A DNA stretch of 64,000 nucleotides, from contig JAFSUN010000011.1 in NCBI GenBank assembly GCA_017445225.1, positions 62,001 to 126,000 on the forward strand, written 5' to 3'. The position numbers and the translations under genes were made by a program. Positions 7,501 to 56,283 of this stretch are shown here, one piece after another. The number at the start of each line of letters is the position of its first letter. Within the stretch, counting starts at the first letter, position 1. The DNA comes from Erysipelotrichaceae bacterium. Lineage in GTDB: Bacteria > Bacillota_I > Bacilli_A > Erysipelotrichales > Erysipelotrichaceae. The notes under the pieces were generated by a model. The model made no database searches, was not told the DNA's origin, and was given only the letters and a program-made list of their open reading frames with translations.

Positions 7501-8739
7501 ATGAGTGAAAAAATGACTTTTTTTGAAGAACTGCAGTGGCGCGGACTGGTACAGGACATTTCCAGTCCGGAACTGATCGACAAGCTTAATGAAGGCGGCC
7601 TGACCTTCTACATCGGAACCGACCCGACCGCCGATTCCATGCACATCGGCCATTATTCATCATTCCTGATCTCCAAGCGTCTGGCTCAGCATGGCCATCA
7701 TCCCCTGCTGCTGGTCGGCGGCGCCACCGGTCTGATCGGTGACCCGAAACCGGATGCCGAAAGACCGATGATCACCTATGAGCAGGTTGCCCATAACATC
7801 GCCGGACTGAAGAAGCAGGCTGAGGACATCTTCGGCTTTGAAGTAGTCAACAACTATGACTGGACCAAGGACATCAACGTCATCGATTTCCTGCGGGACT
7901 ACGGCAAGTACTTCAATGTCAACTACATGCTGGCCAAGGACAAGGTCAAGAGCAGAATGGATTCCGGCATTACCTACGCCGAATTCAGCTACATGATCCT
8001 GCAGGCTCTGGACTTCCTGTATCTCTATGAGAAACGCAACTGCACCCTGCAGGTAGCCGGCAGCGACCAGTGGGGCAACATCACCTCCGGCATCGAACTC
8101 ATCCGCAAGAAGCTGGATAAGACGGCCTACGGCATGGTCATGCCGTTAGTTACCGATTCCACCGGCAAGAAGTTCGGCAAGACCGAAGGCAACGCCTTAT
8201 GGCTGGATAAGAACAAGACCTCCAGCTACGAGATGTATCAGTACCTGATCAATCTGGAAGATTCCATGATCATCGACTACCTGAAGAAACTCACCTTCCT
8301 GACCCCTGAGGAGATCATGGAAATTGAGAAACAGCACAACGAAGCCCCGCATCTGCGCATCGCCCACAAGGCTCTGGCCCGGGACATCATCGTTGGACTG
8401 CACGGTGAGGAAGAATACAACAAGGCCGTCAAGATCTCCCAGGCGCTGTTCGGCGGCGATCTGGAAGGCTTAAGTGCCGAAGACATACTGCAGGCCGGCA
8501 AACAAGTACCGTCCATCGAGGTTGCCCCCGGCGATAAGCTCATCGATCTGCTGGTCAATTCCAAGATCTGTTCCAGCCGCCGGGAAGCCAGAGAGATGCT
8601 GGCCAGCGGTGCCATTTCCATCAATAACGTCCGTCACAGCGACGAAAACGAGATCATTGATGAGAATTGTGCCATTGACGGCAAGGTCATGATCATCCGC
8701 AAGGGCAAGAAAAAGCAGTTCATCGGCATCATGAAATAA
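7501..8739 (+). CDS. tyrS: Tyrosyl-tRNA synthetase
   Basis: Charges tRNA-Tyr with tyrosine in the cytoplasm. At 412 aa it is the bacterial TyrRS type, with class I signature HIGH (SMHIGHYSSF), tyrosine pocket DQWGNI, KFGKT as the KMSKS equivalent and a C-terminal S4 RNA-binding domain (about residues 350-410). The start at 7501 is preferred over an in-frame codon at 7438 because 7438 lies inside the T-box sequence and GAGGAG precedes 7501. Regulated by the T-box leader; a terminator follows at 8744. Confidence 0.97.
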   Translation: MSEKMTFFEELQWRGLVQDISSPELIDKLNEGGLTFYIGTDPTADSMHIGHYSSFLISKRLAQHGHHPLLLVGGATGLIGDPKPDAERPMITYEQVAHNIAGLKKQAEDIFGFEVVNNYDWTKDINVIDFLRDYGKYFNVNYMLAKDKVKSRMDSGITYAEFSYMILQALDFLYLYEKRNCTLQVAGSDQWGNITSGIELIRKKLDKTAYGMVMPLVTDSTGKKFGKTEGNALWLDKNKTSSYEMYQYLINLEDSMIIDYLKKLTFLTPEEIMEIEKQHNEAPHLRIAHKALARDIIVGLHGEEEYNKAVKISQALFGGDLEGLSAEDILQAGKQVPSIEVAPGDKLIDLLVNSKICSSRREAREMLASGAISINNVRHSDENEIIDENCAIDGKVMIIRKGKKKQFIGIMK

Positions 8740-9626: not shown

Positions 9627-10375
9627 GCGATGATTATTTCGATCGGACAGTGGTCGCTGCCCATTATTTCGGTGTGATGGATGACATCCTGGATCCGCTC
9701 ACTGAAGTCCTCGGAAACCAGGAAGTAATCGATGCGCCAGCCGATGTTGCGGGCCCGGACGTTTCCCAGATAGCTCCACCAGGTGTAGCTGTCTTTTTTA
9801 TCAGGATACTTATGACGGAAGGCATCGACCAGGCCGCTGGCCAGCATCTCCGTCATCTTTCCCCTTTCTTCCCAGGTGAATCCGGCATTGCCGATGTTGG
9901 CTTTGGCATTCTTAATGTCGATCTCCTGATGAGCGACATTCATGTCCCCGCAGCAGACCACCGGTTTTCTTTCCCGAAGGTTCTTCAGATAGGCGCGGAA
10001 GTCATCTTCCCACTGCATGAGGTAGTCCAGTCTGGTCAGTTCCCTCTTCACATTGGGCACATAGACGTTTACCAGATAGAAGTCGGCAAACTCCATCGTG
10101 ATGACTCTTCCCTCGTGGTCGTGTTCCTCGATCCCGATGCCGTAGCTGACGGATAAGGGTTCGATCCGGGTATAGATTGCCGTTCCGGAATACCCCTTCT
10201 TTTCGGCGGGATTGACATACAGCTGATAGCCCTCGGGATGGAAGGTTATCTGTTCCGGCAGGGCCTTCACTTCCTGCAGGCAGAAGACGTCAGCATTGTT
10301 TCCGCTGAAGAATTCCTCAAAGCCCTTTTTCAGCACGGCCCTGAAGCCGGCGACGTTCCATGATACGATTCTCAT
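9623..10375 (-). CDS. exoA: Exodeoxyribonuclease III / AP endonuclease
   Basis: Class II apurinic/apyrimidinic endonuclease and 3'-5' exonuclease in base excision repair. At 250 aa it is an EEP-fold protein with all motifs: RIVSWNVAGFRA, FCLQEVKA, GDMNVAHQEIDI, RNIGWRIDYFLV and GSDHCPI. ATG 10375 gives the family N-terminus; the AGG of the preceding gene's last codon may act as ribosome site, so it is translationally linked to the flippase gene that ends 7 nt upstream. A longer in-frame start at 10477 lies within the neighbour and is rejected. Confidence 0.95.
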   Translation of the reverse strand: MRIVSWNVAGFRAVLKKGFEEFFSGNNADVFCLQEVKALPEQITFHPEGYQLYVNPAEKKGYSGTAIYTRIEPLSVSYGIGIEEHDHEGRVITMEFADFYLVNVYVPNVKRELTRLDYLMQWEDDFRAYLKNLRERKPVVCCGDMNVAHQEIDIKNAKANIGNAGFTWEERGKMTEMLASGLVDAFRHKYPDKKDSYTWWSYLGNVRARNIGWRIDYFLVSEDFSERIQDVIHHTEIMGSDHCPIEIIIA

Positions 10376-51072: not shown

Positions 51073-51078
51073 AAACGT

Positions 51079-51290
51079 AAAGACGTTGAAGATGGTTGAG
51101 TAGCTTCTTCTTTCAGAAATCCAGAGAGTCATCGATGGTGGAAGATGGCCTGAGAACTGAAGCGAAATGGAACATCGGAGTTGTTCATACCGGCAGCACC
51201 GTTATCGCAGAGTGACCGTTAGATCAGTAACGGTAATTTGGGTGGTACCACGCCACAGCGTCCCAGAAGGATGCTTTTTTATTGGAGGTA
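51079..51290 (+). promoter_or_regulatory. T-box riboswitch upstream of trpS
   Basis: Canonical leader of about 215 nt. AG-bulge region CAGAGAG and GGTGG loop sequence (51122-51141), a TGG specifier at 51168-51170 (GCGAAATGGAACATC), T-box sequence GGGTGGTACCACGCC (51240-51254) and a GCGTCC/GGATGC terminator with six T (51258-51280). Confidence 0.95.
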
Positions 51291-51295
51291 GAGTT

Positions 51296-52285
51296 ATGAA
51301 GAGAATGCTTAGTGGAATTAAGCCGACAGGCGAGTTGACCTTGGGAAACTATATCGGAGCCCTGAGAAACTTTGTCAAGTATCAGGACAGTTATGAACTG
51401 TATGTTTTCGTTGCGAATCTGCATTGTGTAACCGTATATCAGGAGCCAAAGGAACTGAGAAAGAACCTGAAGGACGCCATTGCCCTTTATCTGGCCTGCG
51501 GCCTTGATCCGGAAAAATGTACGATTTTCCTGCAGTCAGATGTCCTTGAACACGCTCAGCTCGGTTGGCTGATGACCTGCATGACCTACATGGGTGAACT
51601 GGGAAGAATGACCCAGTACAAGGAAAAGACCAAGGGTGCCAAGGATGAAAGCATCAGTGCCGGTCTGTTTGTCTACCCTTCCCTGATGGCTGCTGACATT
51701 CTCCTTTATGACGCCGACTATGTTCCGGTTGGCGAAGACCAGAAGCAGCATGTTGAGATCACCCGTGACCTCGCTCAGAGATTCAATAACCGCTATTCGG
51801 AAACCTTTACCCTTCCGGAACCGCTGATTCCTCAGGTTGGTGCCAGGATCATGTCCCTTACCGATCCGACCAAGAAGATGAGCAAGTCAGAAGAATCCAA
51901 TAAGGGATGTATCTATCTGACTGATGATCCGGCAGTTGCCAGAAAGAAGATCATGGGCGCCGTAACTGATAACTATGCTCATGTCAACTATGACAAGGAA
52001 AATCAGCCCGGTGTCAGCAACCTTCTGGAGATCCTGTCTTCCCTGACCGGTGAGGCGATCGACAGCATCGTTGCCCGATATGAAGGCAAGGGCTACGGCG
52101 ATTTCAAGAAGGAAGTCGGCGATGCCGTAGCTAATGAGCTCACCATGATCCAGAATCGCTATAACGACATTCTCAAGAGCGGAATGATTGAGACGGTCCT
52201 GAAGGAAGGCGCCGAAAAGGCCCATCGCATTGCCTTCAGGAAGCTCAAGAAAGTCCAGAAGAAGATGGGAATTGACATTTTCTAA
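51296..52285 (+). CDS. trpS: Tryptophanyl-tRNA synthetase
   Basis: Charges tRNA-Trp. 329 aa class I enzyme with PTGELTLGNYIGAL (HIGH region), tryptophan-pocket GEDQKQHVEI and KKMSKSEES. ATG 51296 follows GGAGG; an in-frame extension to 51167 runs through the T-box and is rejected. Regulated by the T-box with a TGG specifier. Confidence 0.97.
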   Translation: MKRMLSGIKPTGELTLGNYIGALRNFVKYQDSYELYVFVANLHCVTVYQEPKELRKNLKDAIALYLACGLDPEKCTIFLQSDVLEHAQLGWLMTCMTYMGELGRMTQYKEKTKGAKDESISAGLFVYPSLMAADILLYDADYVPVGEDQKQHVEITRDLAQRFNNRYSETFTLPEPLIPQVGARIMSLTDPTKKMSKSEESNKGCIYLTDDPAVARKKIMGAVTDNYAHVNYDKENQPGVSNLLEILSSLTGEAIDSIVARYEGKGYGDFKKEVGDAVANELTMIQNRYNDILKSGMIETVLKEGAEKAHRIAFRKLKKVQKKMGIDIF

Positions 52286-52405: not shown

Positions 52406-52738
52406 ATGAAGGAAATTGAAAAGAAGACGATCGGCAGCATGCCTGATGACTATACCATCCAGACGGTAGCTGAAGCCATGAAACAGCTGGGAGATGCCAG
52501 CAGACTCCGCATATTCTGGCTTTTGTGTCACTTCGAAGAGTGTGTCAGCGGAATAGCGGAGATCACAGGCATGACCTCCCCGGCTGTCAGCCATCATCTC
52601 CGGCTTCTGAAGTCGTCCGGTCTGATAGTAAGTAAAAGAAGCGGCAAGGAAATGTACTATAAGGCGGCTGACAATGAACTGGTGGATTTTCTCCATCATG
52701 CCATTGAAAAGGTTGCCAACATCACCTGTCCTCAATGA
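52406..52738 (+). CDS. ArsR/SmtB-family metal-responsive repressor
   Basis: 110 aa winged-helix repressor. DNA-recognition helix VSGIAEITGMTSPAVSHHLRLLKSSGL and wing VSKRSGKEMYYKAADNEL. Candidate metal ligands are the cysteines in LLCHFEECVS (alpha-3 region) and His-His at LHHAIEKV plus C-terminal Cys in NITCPQ. Family members release DNA when zinc, cadmium or lead binds. The P1B ATPase 1.4 kb away, separated by a TnpB insertion, is the probable target; ligand type is inference. Start follows GGTGGTG. Confidence 0.9.
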   Translation: MKEIEKKTIGSMPDDYTIQTVAEAMKQLGDASRLRIFWLLCHFEECVSGIAEITGMTSPAVSHHLRLLKSSGLIVSKRSGKEMYYKAADNELVDFLHHAIEKVANITCPQ

Positions 52739-52747
52739 TGAGTATAA

Positions 52748-52777
52748 GGTTCTCCTAAAGCAGAGAGCCTTTTTTTC
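52748..52777 (+). terminator. Terminator of the arsR-type gene, built from the TnpB-element inverted repeat
   Basis: GGTTCTC/GAGAGCC hairpin with loop CTAAAGCA followed by seven T. The same loop and stem recur inverted at 52850-52870 inside the tnpB end. Confidence 0.8.
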
Positions 52778-52867
52778 GGCCTTTTCCAGCAGTGTGCCCG
52801 TAGAATCCTCGACCTTGTGACAGTCCACCACGTGGGTGGAATAGTTCCTGCTCTCTGCTTTAGGAGA
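52751..52867. repeat. 18-bp perfect inverted repeat
   Basis: TCTCCTAAAGCAGAGAGC at 52751-52768 and its exact reverse complement at 52850-52867; extends to 21 bp with one mismatch (52748-52768/52850-52870). The arms are also self-complementary, so each can fold alone or with the other. Confidence 0.95.
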
Positions 52868-54089
52868 GCCGGCCTTTTGAACTTCCCGCCTGCCCCGACG
52901 GTAGTGTTTCATATCTGCAGGATCGGAGTCCTTCCCTCAGAATGTTTCTGGCAGCGTTAACATCTCTGTCATGTTTCATTCCGCATTGGGGACAGACCCA
53001 TTCCCTGTAGTCAAGATTTTTGATCAGCCGGTTGCGGTAGCCGCAGCGGCTGCAGAGCTGGGAACTGGGGAAATACCGGTTGACCTTAATTACCTTCCGG
53101 CCATACCAGTTCGCCTTGTATTCCAGCATGCTGATGAAGTGATACCAGGAAGCATCCGCCAGGGCATAGGCGACATTGCGTTTCTGCTTAAGAACCCCGA
53201 TCGGCAGATCTTCAACGCAGATGACATCATAGTTTCTGATCAGATAGGTGGAAAGCTTCTGTTCGAAGTCCCTTCGGCTGTCTGCTACCCTTTCTTCAAC
53301 GTCAGCGGCTTTGATCCGCTGCTTCTGGTAATTCCGGCATTCGGTCAGCGGCCGTCGGTAAACAGCGGTCCGGATCAGCTTGCCGTCTTTACTGGTTTCT
53401 TCATAGTGATCGATGTTATTATTCTCCAACTGCGAAAGCCGTCTTCGTTCCCGGCTCAGTTTCTTTCGCAGAACCCGGCCATAACAGGGATTGCGAAACT
53501 TGCGGCCATCGGACATGACGACCAGATCCTTAAGTCCCAGATCCAGTCCGATCGCCTTCCCGGTCGGCTCCAGCGGAGTTGCCGTGGCATAACAGGTCAG
53601 CGACAGATAGAATTTTCCATCCGGTCGGCCGGTTACGATTATCTCGGCCAGCCTCCCTTCCCGTTGCCGGGAATTGACATATTTCATCTTTCCAATGATT
53701 GGCAGACTGATATGGTCGTTATCCAGGCTGACCAGGAATTTCTCATAGTTCTTTCCATAATGCAGCGAGCAGGCGTAGCCCGGTGTTTTTTCCCGGATGA
53801 CAGCCTTTCGGTTTCTGGACGCTTTCTGAAAGATTTTTTCCAGTTCGTAGTACTGATTCTGGAGCAGACCGTAGTCGATGTTTCTGTTCTCGAATTTCTG
53901 TCTGTAGATCAGCTGAAGCTGCCTGGTAAAGTAATGAAATGACAGTCCCAGGCCTGCTGTCTCTCTTGATCTCTGCCATTCCTTAAGAAAATGGTTATAT
54001 ACCCTTCTTGCGGCCTCGGCATTTTCTCTTATAATCTGTGTCTGTTCTTTGTTAGGCAATAGCCTGTATCTGAATGTTTTAGTGATCAT
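52860..54089 (-). CDS. tnpB: TnpB RNA-guided nuclease / IS605-family accessory transposase
   Basis: 409 aa. N-terminal helix-turn-helix region (FRYRLLPNKEQTQIIRENAEAARRVYNHFL), then a split RuvC-like nuclease with GLDLG (D183), VEDLP (E293) and DRDVNAARN (D374/D376), and a zinc knuckle CSRCG..CPQCG (C346, C349, C366, C369). All catalytic residues are present, so it should be active as a nuclease. No tnpA is adjacent. The tail GLRSCRYETLPSGQAGSSKGRLS is short and the stop codon lies in the loop of an inverted-repeat hairpin. A roughly 20-residue acidic insertion lies near residues 221-245. Inserted between a metal repressor and its presumed ATPase target. Confidence 0.93.
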   Translation of the reverse strand: MITKTFRYRLLPNKEQTQIIRENAEAARRVYNHFLKEWQRSRETAGLGLSFHYFTRQLQLIYRQKFENRNIDYGLLQNQYYELEKIFQKASRNRKAVIREKTPGYACSLHYGKNYEKFLVSLDNDHISLPIIGKMKYVNSRQREGRLAEIIVTGRPDGKFYLSLTCYATATPLEPTGKAIGLDLGLKDLVVMSDGRKFRNPCYGRVLRKKLSRERRRLSQLENNNIDHYEETSKDGKLIRTAVYRRPLTECRNYQKQRIKAADVEERVADSRRDFEQKLSTYLIRNYDVICVEDLPIGVLKQKRNVAYALADASWYHFISMLEYKANWYGRKVIKVNRYFPSSQLCSRCGYRNRLIKNLDYREWVCPQCGMKHDRDVNAARNILREGLRSCRYETLPSGQAGSSKGRLS

Positions 54090-54136
54090 GTTTCCTTTCC
54101 TCTGCTTACTAATAGAAGCAGGGAAAAAGGTTCCCT

Positions 54137-54165
54137 AAAAAAAACTCCGTTTCCGGAGTTTTTTT
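54137..54165 (-). terminator. Terminator after the P1B ATPase gene
   Basis: AACTCCG/CGGAGTT hairpin with T-runs on both strands; overlaps the end of the ATPase coding region. Confidence 0.9.
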
Positions 54166-56048
54166 CATACATTTTTAACATTCAGGGCTCTTACGGCATT
54201 AAGGACGGCGATCACCATGACTCCGACATCAGCAAAGATGGCCCACCACATGTTGGCATAGCCGATGGCACTGAACAGCAGACACAGCAGCTTGACGCCG
54301 ATGGCGAAATAGATGTTCTCGTAGACGATTCGTAAGCTCTTTCTGGCTATTCTGATGGCCTTGGCAATGCTCTGCGGATTGTCATCCATCAGGACGATAT
54401 CGGCCGCCTCGATGGCTGCATCGCTTCCCAGAGCCCCCATGGCGATGCCAATGTCAGCTCGGGCCAGAACGGGAGCATCATTGATGCCGTCACCGACAAA
54501 GGCGATGACATCGGCGGCATTCTTCTTCTGGGTAAGTTTTTTCTCAACGATTTCCACCTTGTCAGCCGGCAGCAGTTCTGAATGGACTTCCTTGATTCCG
54601 ATCTCTCCGGCGATGTGTTCGGCGATCTCCTTCTTGTCACCTGTCAGCATGACCTTATCGGTAATGCCGGCTTCGGTCAGCTGCTTCATGGCGTCAGCCG
54701 TGGTTTCCTTGATGACATCGGCAATGACGATGTGACCGACGTATTGACCGTCAATGGCAGCGTGAACGATGGTACCTACCTTGGTACAGGGTTCAAGGGC
54801 AATCCCGTTTTCTCTCATGAGCTTTTCGTTGCCGACCAGAACCGTTTTATTGTTGATGACGGCCTTTACACCGCGCCCGGAGATCTCTTCACTGCTGTCG
54901 ATCTGGCAGTCATCGTGTTCTTCGCCATAGGCTTTCTTGAGGCTGATGGCGATCGGATGGTTGGAATATCTTTCCGCATGAGCTACGTAGTGCAGCAGTT
55001 CTCTTTCTTCAATCCCTTCAGGATGGATGGATACCACTTCAAAGACGCCTTTGGTCAGGGTGCCCGTCTTGTCAAACATGACGGTTTTGGTCTTACTGAG
55101 GGCTTCCAGATAGTTGGAGCCCTTGACCAGAACACCGGCATTGCTGGCTCCGCCGATACCGGCGAAGAAGGTTAAGGGAATGCTGATGACCAAGGCACAG
55201 GGGCAGCTGATTACTAAGAATGTCAGAGCCCGGTAGATCCAGGTTGACCACAGTGGATCGCGGCCGGAAATCATTAGAAACAGCGGTGGCAGAAAAGCCA
55301 GAGCAATGGCGCTGTATACAACAGCCGGAGTATAAACGCGGGCGAAGCGGGAGATGAAGTTCTCCTGGTTGGATTTTCTGGAGGTGGCATTTTCCACCAG
55401 ATCCAGGATCTTGGAGACGGTCGACTCTCCGAATTCCCTGGTCGTTTCTATTCTTAACAGGCCGGAATTGTTTATGCAGCCGGAGATCACATCATCCCCA
55501 GGTCCTACCTGACGGTAGACGCTTTCACCGGTCAGGGCACTGGTATCCAGGAAGGAAGTACCTTCAATGACCCTGCCGTCGATTGGGATCTTTTCGCCCG
55601 GCTGGACGACGATGATGGTGCCGATCTCGACATCATCGGGATCGACCTGTTCCAGGCCGTCCTCCCCTTCGATGTTGGCATAGTCCGGTCGGATGTCCAT
55701 CAGTTCATTGATGTTCTTGCGGCTCTTGCCGACGGCATAGCTCTGGAACCATTCACCGATCTGATAGAACAGCATGACCGCTACAGCTTCCACATAGTCG
55801 CCGGTACTGGTAAGGCCCAACACGATGGCACCGATGGTCGCAAAGGCCATCAGAAAACACTCATCAAACGGCTGTCTGTTCTTAAGTCCCTTTAATGCTT
55901 TCAATAATATGTCATACCCTACGATCAGGTAAGGTATCATGTATAATACAAACCTTGTAATTCTCTGGGATGGGATGAATCGCAGAACTATCAGAAGTGC
56001 GGCTGCTGCCAGGATCCGCAGCAGGTTGTTCTTCTGTTTTTTGGTCAT
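54165..56048 (-). CDS. Zn/Cd/Pb-type P1B-ATPase
   Basis: Metal efflux pump, 627 aa, without an N-terminal HMA domain. Membrane helices frame an actuator domain (DTSALTGES), the metal-site CPC in SCPCALVISIP, phosphorylation motif DKTGTLT, HP of nucleotide domain (YSNHPIA) and GDGINDAPVLARADIGIAMG. The final helix has ADVGVMVIAVLNAVR, with the Asp typical of ZntA/CadA-type (P1B-2) pumps. The HMA domain is encoded separately 13 nt upstream. Likely controlled by the ArsR-type repressor at 52406. Confidence 0.92.
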   Translation of the reverse strand: MTKKQKNNLLRILAAAALLIVLRFIPSQRITRFVLYMIPYLIVGYDILLKALKGLKNRQPFDECFLMAFATIGAIVLGLTSTGDYVEAVAVMLFYQIGEWFQSYAVGKSRKNINELMDIRPDYANIEGEDGLEQVDPDDVEIGTIIVVQPGEKIPIDGRVIEGTSFLDTSALTGESVYRQVGPGDDVISGCINNSGLLRIETTREFGESTVSKILDLVENATSRKSNQENFISRFARVYTPAVVYSAIALAFLPPLFLMISGRDPLWSTWIYRALTFLVISCPCALVISIPLTFFAGIGGASNAGVLVKGSNYLEALSKTKTVMFDKTGTLTKGVFEVVSIHPEGIEERELLHYVAHAERYSNHPIAISLKKAYGEEHDDCQIDSSEEISGRGVKAVINNKTVLVGNEKLMRENGIALEPCTKVGTIVHAAIDGQYVGHIVIADVIKETTADAMKQLTEAGITDKVMLTGDKKEIAEHIAGEIGIKEVHSELLPADKVEIVEKKLTQKKNAADVIAFVGDGINDAPVLARADIGIAMGALGSDAAIEAADIVLMDDNPQSIAKAIRIARKSLRIVYENIYFAIGVKLLCLLFSAIGYANMWWAIFADVGVMVIAVLNAVRALNVKNV

Positions 56049-56061
56049 GTTATCTGACCTT

Positions 56062-56283
56062 TTACTTCAGGAAGATCTCACAGTCAGATTCCACCTTCTT
56101 GCAGTTTTCTCTGACTGTCTTCATGACTTCCTTATGATCGGCTCCCTCTTCAAATTCCACATTCATCTTCAAGGTCATGAAATTGACAACACAGTCTTTG
56201 ACACCCGGGGTGTTCTTGGCTGCCACTTCCATTTTGTTCGCACAGTTTGCACAGTCTACATCAATCTTGTAAGTCTTTTTCAT
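56062..56283 (-). CDS. Stand-alone heavy-metal-associated (HMA) domain protein
   Basis: 73 aa ferredoxin-like HMA domain with DCANCANKME metal motif, as in the N-terminus of CadA/ZntA pumps rather than the copper motif. It directly precedes the ATPase, which lacks its own HMA, so it is either a split-off domain or a metal chaperone for the pump. A GGAGGATC ribosome site precedes ATG 56283; strong promoter with palindromic operator just upstream. Confidence 0.9.
   Translation of the reverse strand: MKKTYKIDVDCANCANKMEVAAKNTPGVKDCVVNFMTLKMNVEFEEGADHKEVMKTVRENCKKVESDCEIFLK

What the first reader, a model, noticed from the sequence alone, without database searches (positions are those of the whole stretch)
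52739..52870. Shared inverted repeat acts as arsR terminator and as tnpB 3' hairpin
An 18-bp perfect inverted repeat (52751-52768/52850-52867) places one arm as the T-tailed terminator of the arsR-type gene and the other arm over the tnpB stop codon. Each arm folds alone and the two pair together, so convergent transcripts would be complementary. Either the element brought a terminator with it or its right end captured one; both arms could shape an omega RNA.
Basis: partly seen in the sequence, partly recalled or inferred. Interest (0 to 1): 0.6.

Follow-up and report, generated by a model that had tools for sequence, protein, structure and literature searches.

The report
Duplicated hairpin beside a tnpB gene
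An 18-base hairpin that ends the arsR transcript occurs a second time, inverted, across the stop codon of a neighbouring transposon-nuclease gene (tnpB); it is most likely a small copying accident rather than a regulatory device, so it is real but fairly ordinary.

Summary
Arms 52751-52768 and 52850-52867 are a perfect 18-bp inverted repeat with an 81-nt spacer. It is the longest spaced inverted repeat in 325 kb of this genome, and no other genome searched has the sequence. The arsR-side arm is a convincing intrinsic terminator (9-bp stem, T7). The other arm spans the tnpB stop codon.

Arm 1 on the arsR strand and arm 2 on the tnpB strand read the same sequence. The two transcripts' own 3' hairpins are therefore identical, not complementary; only one transcript spanning both arms could pair them.

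An omegaRNA-like layout fits 52817-52901 (minus strand) by structure: hairpin, outer stem, inner hairpin (= arm 2), terminal hairpin, TCAC. A sequence-plus-structure model that finds many relatives' omegaRNAs does not find this one. On that layout the element ends at about 52817 and arm 1 lies about 48 nt outside it.

Best reading: a short-range template switch copied one hairpin onto the other, more likely terminator into omegaRNA region, with no shown regulatory role.

The parts
52406..52738 (+). arsR-family regulator gene (SmtB/ArsR type)
   Evidence: Pfam HTH_5, 4e-12; relatives 47-67% identical in other genera, mostly divergent from HMA/ATPase genes there
52746..52776 (+). arsR intrinsic terminator: AAGGTTCTC-CTAAAGCA-GAGAGCCTT plus T7; contains repeat arm 1 (52751-52768)
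   Evidence: no U-run on the minus strand, so not a tnpB terminator
52751..52768 (+). inverted repeat arm 1
52850..52867 (-). inverted repeat arm 2; within the 6-bp hairpin GCTCTC-CTAAAGCA-GAGAGC; tnpB stop codon in its loop
52817..52901 (-). candidate omegaRNA scaffold and right end: hairpin 1 (from 52901), outer stem AGTTC/GAACT, inner hairpin = arm 2, terminal hairpin CCACC/GGTGG, ACTGTCAC end
   Evidence: Only full match to the structural layout in 64 kb, both strands; 0 of 4000 shuffles; NOT detected by sequence-structure model R1. Inferred.
52797..52816 (-). position of a 20-nt guide if the right end is 52817
   Evidence: inference from the general TnpB layout (PMC10278001)
52877..52891 (-). 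alternative right-end tag GGGAAGTTCAA; if real, the omegaRNA core is deleted and both arms are flanking DNA
   Evidence: weak model matches, 5.9 and 10 bits
52860..54089 (-). tnpB, full length, RuvC acidic residues and zinc finger present, single copy; no tnpA among the neighbouring ORFs
54138..54165 (+). terminator-like hairpin between tnpB and the metal-ATPase gene

Best explanation
The repeat is a short local inverted duplication made by DNA-polymerase template switching (the quasi-palindrome mutation mechanism) between two hairpins that already lay about 100 bp apart: the arsR intrinsic terminator and a hairpin at the 3' end of the tnpB element, probably the inner stem of its omegaRNA. One hairpin was copied onto the other, more likely the terminator onto the omegaRNA region, making the arms identical over 18 bp. 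Arm 1 then works only as the arsR terminator. Arm 2 works at most as an omegaRNA stem. The pairing between arms has no shown function. Shown: repeat, terminator-like hairpin, uniqueness. Inferred: omegaRNA role of arm 2, copying mechanism, direction.
For: An 18-bp spaced perfect repeat is far outside the local background and unique to this genome, so it is probably recent and local. Arm 1 is a complete terminator whose stem continues beyond the repeat (AAGG/CCTT). Arm 2 sits where relatives have the inner omegaRNA hairpin; the whole layout matches once in 64 kb, 0 of 4000 shuffles. None of 31 related elements has such a repeat across its right end (longest 10 bp). Relatives' inner hairpins have 7-bp stems and 4-nt loops in the consensus; arm 2 has 6 bp and the 8-nt loop of the terminator, which favours copying from terminator to omegaRNA. 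Template switching turns imperfect inverted repeats into perfect ones in E. coli (PMC7202029) and can create and rewrite RNA hairpins (PMC8794818).
Against: No pre-event sequence exists in the data, so neither mechanism nor direction is observed. The omegaRNA assignment fails the sequence-structure model, the region folds no better than shuffles (z 0.20), and the layout test was written after seeing this locus. A different right end (52877) is possible.
Confidence: 0.5

Rival explanations
1. Both arms are host DNA: the tnpB right end is at 52877 (GGGAAGTTCAA), the omegaRNA core was deleted, and the inverted repeat belonged to the arsR 3' region before or independently of the element.
For: Best right-end model match in the 2 kb around tnpB ends at 52877 (10 bits); model R1 aligns only this tag; the canonical omegaRNA found in several near relatives is not detected here.
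Against: The score is not significant over 64 kb (E 7.6). The ordered stems between 52817 and 52901 would then be coincidence.
Confidence: 0.2
2. The element donated the hairpin: an omegaRNA stem was copied outward and became, with a T-tract, the arsR terminator.
For: The 18-mer fits the place of the inner omegaRNA stem; same template-switch mechanism, opposite direction. arsR relatives share no conserved terminator here.
Against: The core is absent from all related tnpB loci fetched; the 8-nt loop is unlike relatives' 4-nt loops; the terminator stem extends beyond the repeat.
Confidence: 0.15
3. The repeat is a selected RNA device: a tnpB read-through transcript pairs the two arms and so disrupts the omegaRNA stem, or it blocks arsR expression.
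For: On one minus-strand RNA the arms pair in preference to their own hairpins (-58.4 kcal/mol, z -3.3); no U-run stops the minus-strand transcript at arm 1.
Against: Separate arsR and tnpB transcripts carry identical, not complementary, hairpins; no second example in related elements and no conservation.
Confidence: 0.07
4. Chance similarity of two independent hairpins.
For: Hairpins share constraints; stems of 5-6 bp are easy to match.
Against: The 8-nt loops also match in inverted orientation; about 1e-6 by my estimate; nothing similar in 325 kb.
Confidence: 0.03

Closest known systems
Quasi-palindrome / template-switch mutations (E. coli lacZ reporters, PMC7202029; rRNA hairpins, PMC8794818)
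   Same: Short blocks become exactly complementary to a nearby inverted copy; hairpin-prone sites; the E. coli reporters are built on an 18-bp quasi-palindrome.
   Different: Here no ancestral sequence is available, so the event is inferred from its product; the arms are 81 nt apart.
TnpB omegaRNA right end of IS200/IS605 elements (PMC10278001)
   Same: tnpB followed by hairpins, subterminal hairpin within 10 nt of a TCAC end, guide outside the element; TnpB with RuvC-III DRDxN.
   Different: Scaffold sequence too diverged for a model that finds many relatives; tnpB stop lies in the inner hairpin loop; no canonical left end or tnpA seen.
Intrinsic (rho-independent) terminator
   Same: 9-bp stem and T7 right after arsR.
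   Different: 8-nt loop; shares its hairpin with a nearby inverted copy.

Membership tests
Intrinsic terminator (arm 1) | G+C-containing stem followed by a T-run on the sense strand | tested here: met
   9 pairs, T7; z -3.5
Intrinsic terminator (arm 1) | transcript ends there in vivo | not testable with these tools
   needs 3'-end RNA mapping
Typical TnpB | OrfB/Cas12f-like domains, RuvC acidic residues (RuvC-III DRDxN), zinc finger | tested here: met
omegaRNA scaffold at 52817-52901 | match to a covariance model of relatives' omegaRNAs | tested here: not met
   (no full match, filters off) although many relatives not in the model are found
omegaRNA scaffold at 52817-52901 | same order of stems and terminal TCAA/TCAC behind tnpB | tested here: inconclusive
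   the layout is present and specific, but it was defined after seeing the locus and recovers only 6 of 17 listed relatives
omegaRNA scaffold at 52817-52901 | RNA bound and processed by TnpB | not testable with these tools
   needs RNA sequencing
Template-switch (quasi-palindrome) product | near-perfect spaced inverted repeat well above background | tested here: met
Template-switch (quasi-palindrome) product | ancestral sequence with an imperfect repeat | tested here: inconclusive
   no relative examined keeps the locus

The most novel reading that the evidence does not exclude
An omegaRNA stem was rewritten in one step by copying a neighbouring host terminator, so that a TnpB guide-RNA scaffold evolves by template switching with flanking host hairpins, and the resulting arm pairing may let read-through transcripts inactivate the scaffold.
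Probability: 0.12. Interest if true: 0.45.

Novelty: new member of a known kind. Interest (0 to 1): 0.2.

Why it matters
If correct, it is a clean natural example of template switching spreading a hairpin between a host terminator and a transposon RNA, a plausible route by which omegaRNA stems diversify while TnpB stays conserved. It has no demonstrated regulatory consequence.

Tried and rejected
1) Antisense pairing of convergent transcripts: rejected, arms read identically on the two sense strands. 2) The arsR-side copy as a decayed tandem copy of the omegaRNA in direct orientation (shared CGGCCTTTT): the alignment was no better than shuffles (944 of 5000 reach it). 3) Canonical omegaRNA by model R1: negative. 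My first by-eye assignment was withdrawn after this and then partly restored by the layout test. 4) Right-end model R2: best local match at 52877 but not significant over the window. 5) A plus-strand right-end remnant at 52802-52849: 2 bits only with R1, nothing with R2. 6) The 18-mer as a dispersed element: absent elsewhere. 7) Plasmid search with the locus DNA: no match. 8) Uninserted locus in the genus: gene order differs in the relatives examined.

Full report
Observation. The repeat is exactly as described: 52751-52768 and 52850-52867 are perfectly complementary over 18 bp with an 81-nt spacer, 21 nt with one mismatch. It is the longest perfect inverted repeat with a 20-300 nt spacer in the window (next 13 bp) and in 261 kb more of the same genome (next 15 bp). 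The random expectation for such a repeat in 64 kb is about 3e-4 (my estimate). The 16-nt core occurs only at these two places in the genome and in none of 8 congeners. The 18-mer with up to one mismatch is in none of 272 other genomes of the family, and the exact 18-mer is not in viral contigs. So it is real, local and probably recent.

Arm 1. The arsR gene (52406-52738) is followed at 52746-52776 by AAGGTTCTC-CTAAAGCA-GAGAGCCTT and T7, a good intrinsic terminator (-11.8 kcal/mol, z -3.5). It has no U-run on the minus strand, so it is not a terminator for tnpB.

Arm 2. tnpB (52860-54089, minus) is full length. It matches solved TnpB structures (E 4e-59), and its RuvC acidic residues and zinc finger are in place. 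It is single copy. Its stop codon lies in the loop of arm 2. To see what arm 2 could be, I compared the 3' ends of many related tnpB loci. They share a scaffold with strong covariation: hairpin 1, an outer stem, an inner hairpin of variable sequence, then GAATC, a terminal hairpin and TCAA/TCAC. A covariance model of it (R1) finds many related loci that were not used to build it: 11 of the 18 loci and 6 of the 19 at E of 1e-5 or better. It does not find a full match here even with filters off. By structure alone, however, the minus strand from 52901 to 52817 has the same order of parts: CCGTC/GGCGG, AGTTC/GAACT enclosing arm 2, CCACC/GGTGG, then ACTGTCAC. This layout occurs once in the 64 kb, both strands, precisely behind tnpB, in 0 of 4000 shuffles, and in only a handful of places away from tnpB 3' ends in 915 kb of other loci. 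The layout was written with this locus in view and recovers only 6 of 17 listed relatives, so I treat it as likely, not shown. The terminal hairpin ends 8 nt before the proposed guide, as described for TnpB right ends (PMC10278001). A competing right end at 52877 has the best score of a right-end model in the neighbourhood (10 bits) but is not significant over the window.

What follows. If the right end is 52817, arm 2 is the inner omegaRNA stem and arm 1 starts about 48 nt outside the element, beyond a 20-nt guide. Arm 1 then cannot be part of the mature omegaRNA. Because arm 1 on the plus strand and arm 2 on the minus strand are the same sequence, the separate arsR and tnpB transcripts do not pair through the repeat. 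Only a single transcript that spans both arms can pair them, and then it does so strongly (-58.4 kcal/mol in 150 nt).

Origin. Two independent hairpins would hardly share an 8-nt loop in inverted orientation by chance. No related tnpB element has a comparable repeat across its right end (longest 10 bp in 31 loci), and the core is absent from the related loci. Short-range template switching makes imperfect inverted repeats perfect in E. coli (PMC7202029) and can create and rewrite RNA hairpins (PMC8794818), and fits this product. Direction is uncertain. In the consensus, relatives' inner hairpins have 7-bp stems and 4-nt loops, whereas arm 2 has a 6-bp stem and the terminator's 8-nt loop. The terminator stem also continues beyond the repeat. 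Both favour copying from the terminator into the element.

Uninserted sites. In four congeners the metal-ATPase genes have a different, co-directional arsR with other terminators. The window's arsR is only 38-45% identical to those, while they are 76-100% identical to each other. Its closer relatives (47-67%) in other genera are mostly encoded divergently from the HMA and ATPase genes, so here arsR sits on the other side of the ATPase, with tnpB at the new junction. I saw no remnant that dates this rearrangement relative to the repeat.

Verdict. A real, unusual but explicable local duplication: ordinary parts (terminator, tnpB) and a known mutational mechanism, with no shown regulatory function.

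Noticed in passing
window 52406-56283: arsR lies on the ATPase side, convergent, whereas its relatives in other genera are mostly divergent from HMA-ATPase; tnpB sits at the rearranged junction.
   Followed up: partly
window 51077-51268: T-box leader (104.5 bits) upstream of trpS at 51296-52285.
   Followed up: no
window 54090-54137: No recognisable left-end hairpin or tnpA next to tnpB; the ATPase terminator lies directly upstream, so the element may be immobile.
   Followed up: partly
window 52746-52759 and 54127-54140: AAGGTTCTCCTAAA recurs as AAGGTTCCCTAAA at the far side of tnpB, in direct orientation; possibly chance.
   Followed up: no
window 8593-8609 and 9834-9850: A 17-bp perfect inverted repeat with a 1.2-kb spacer.
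   Followed up: no
L203:10-109 (start of contig C7 of the window's genome): A 15-bp inverted repeat with a 70-nt spacer at the very start of the contig.
   Followed up: no
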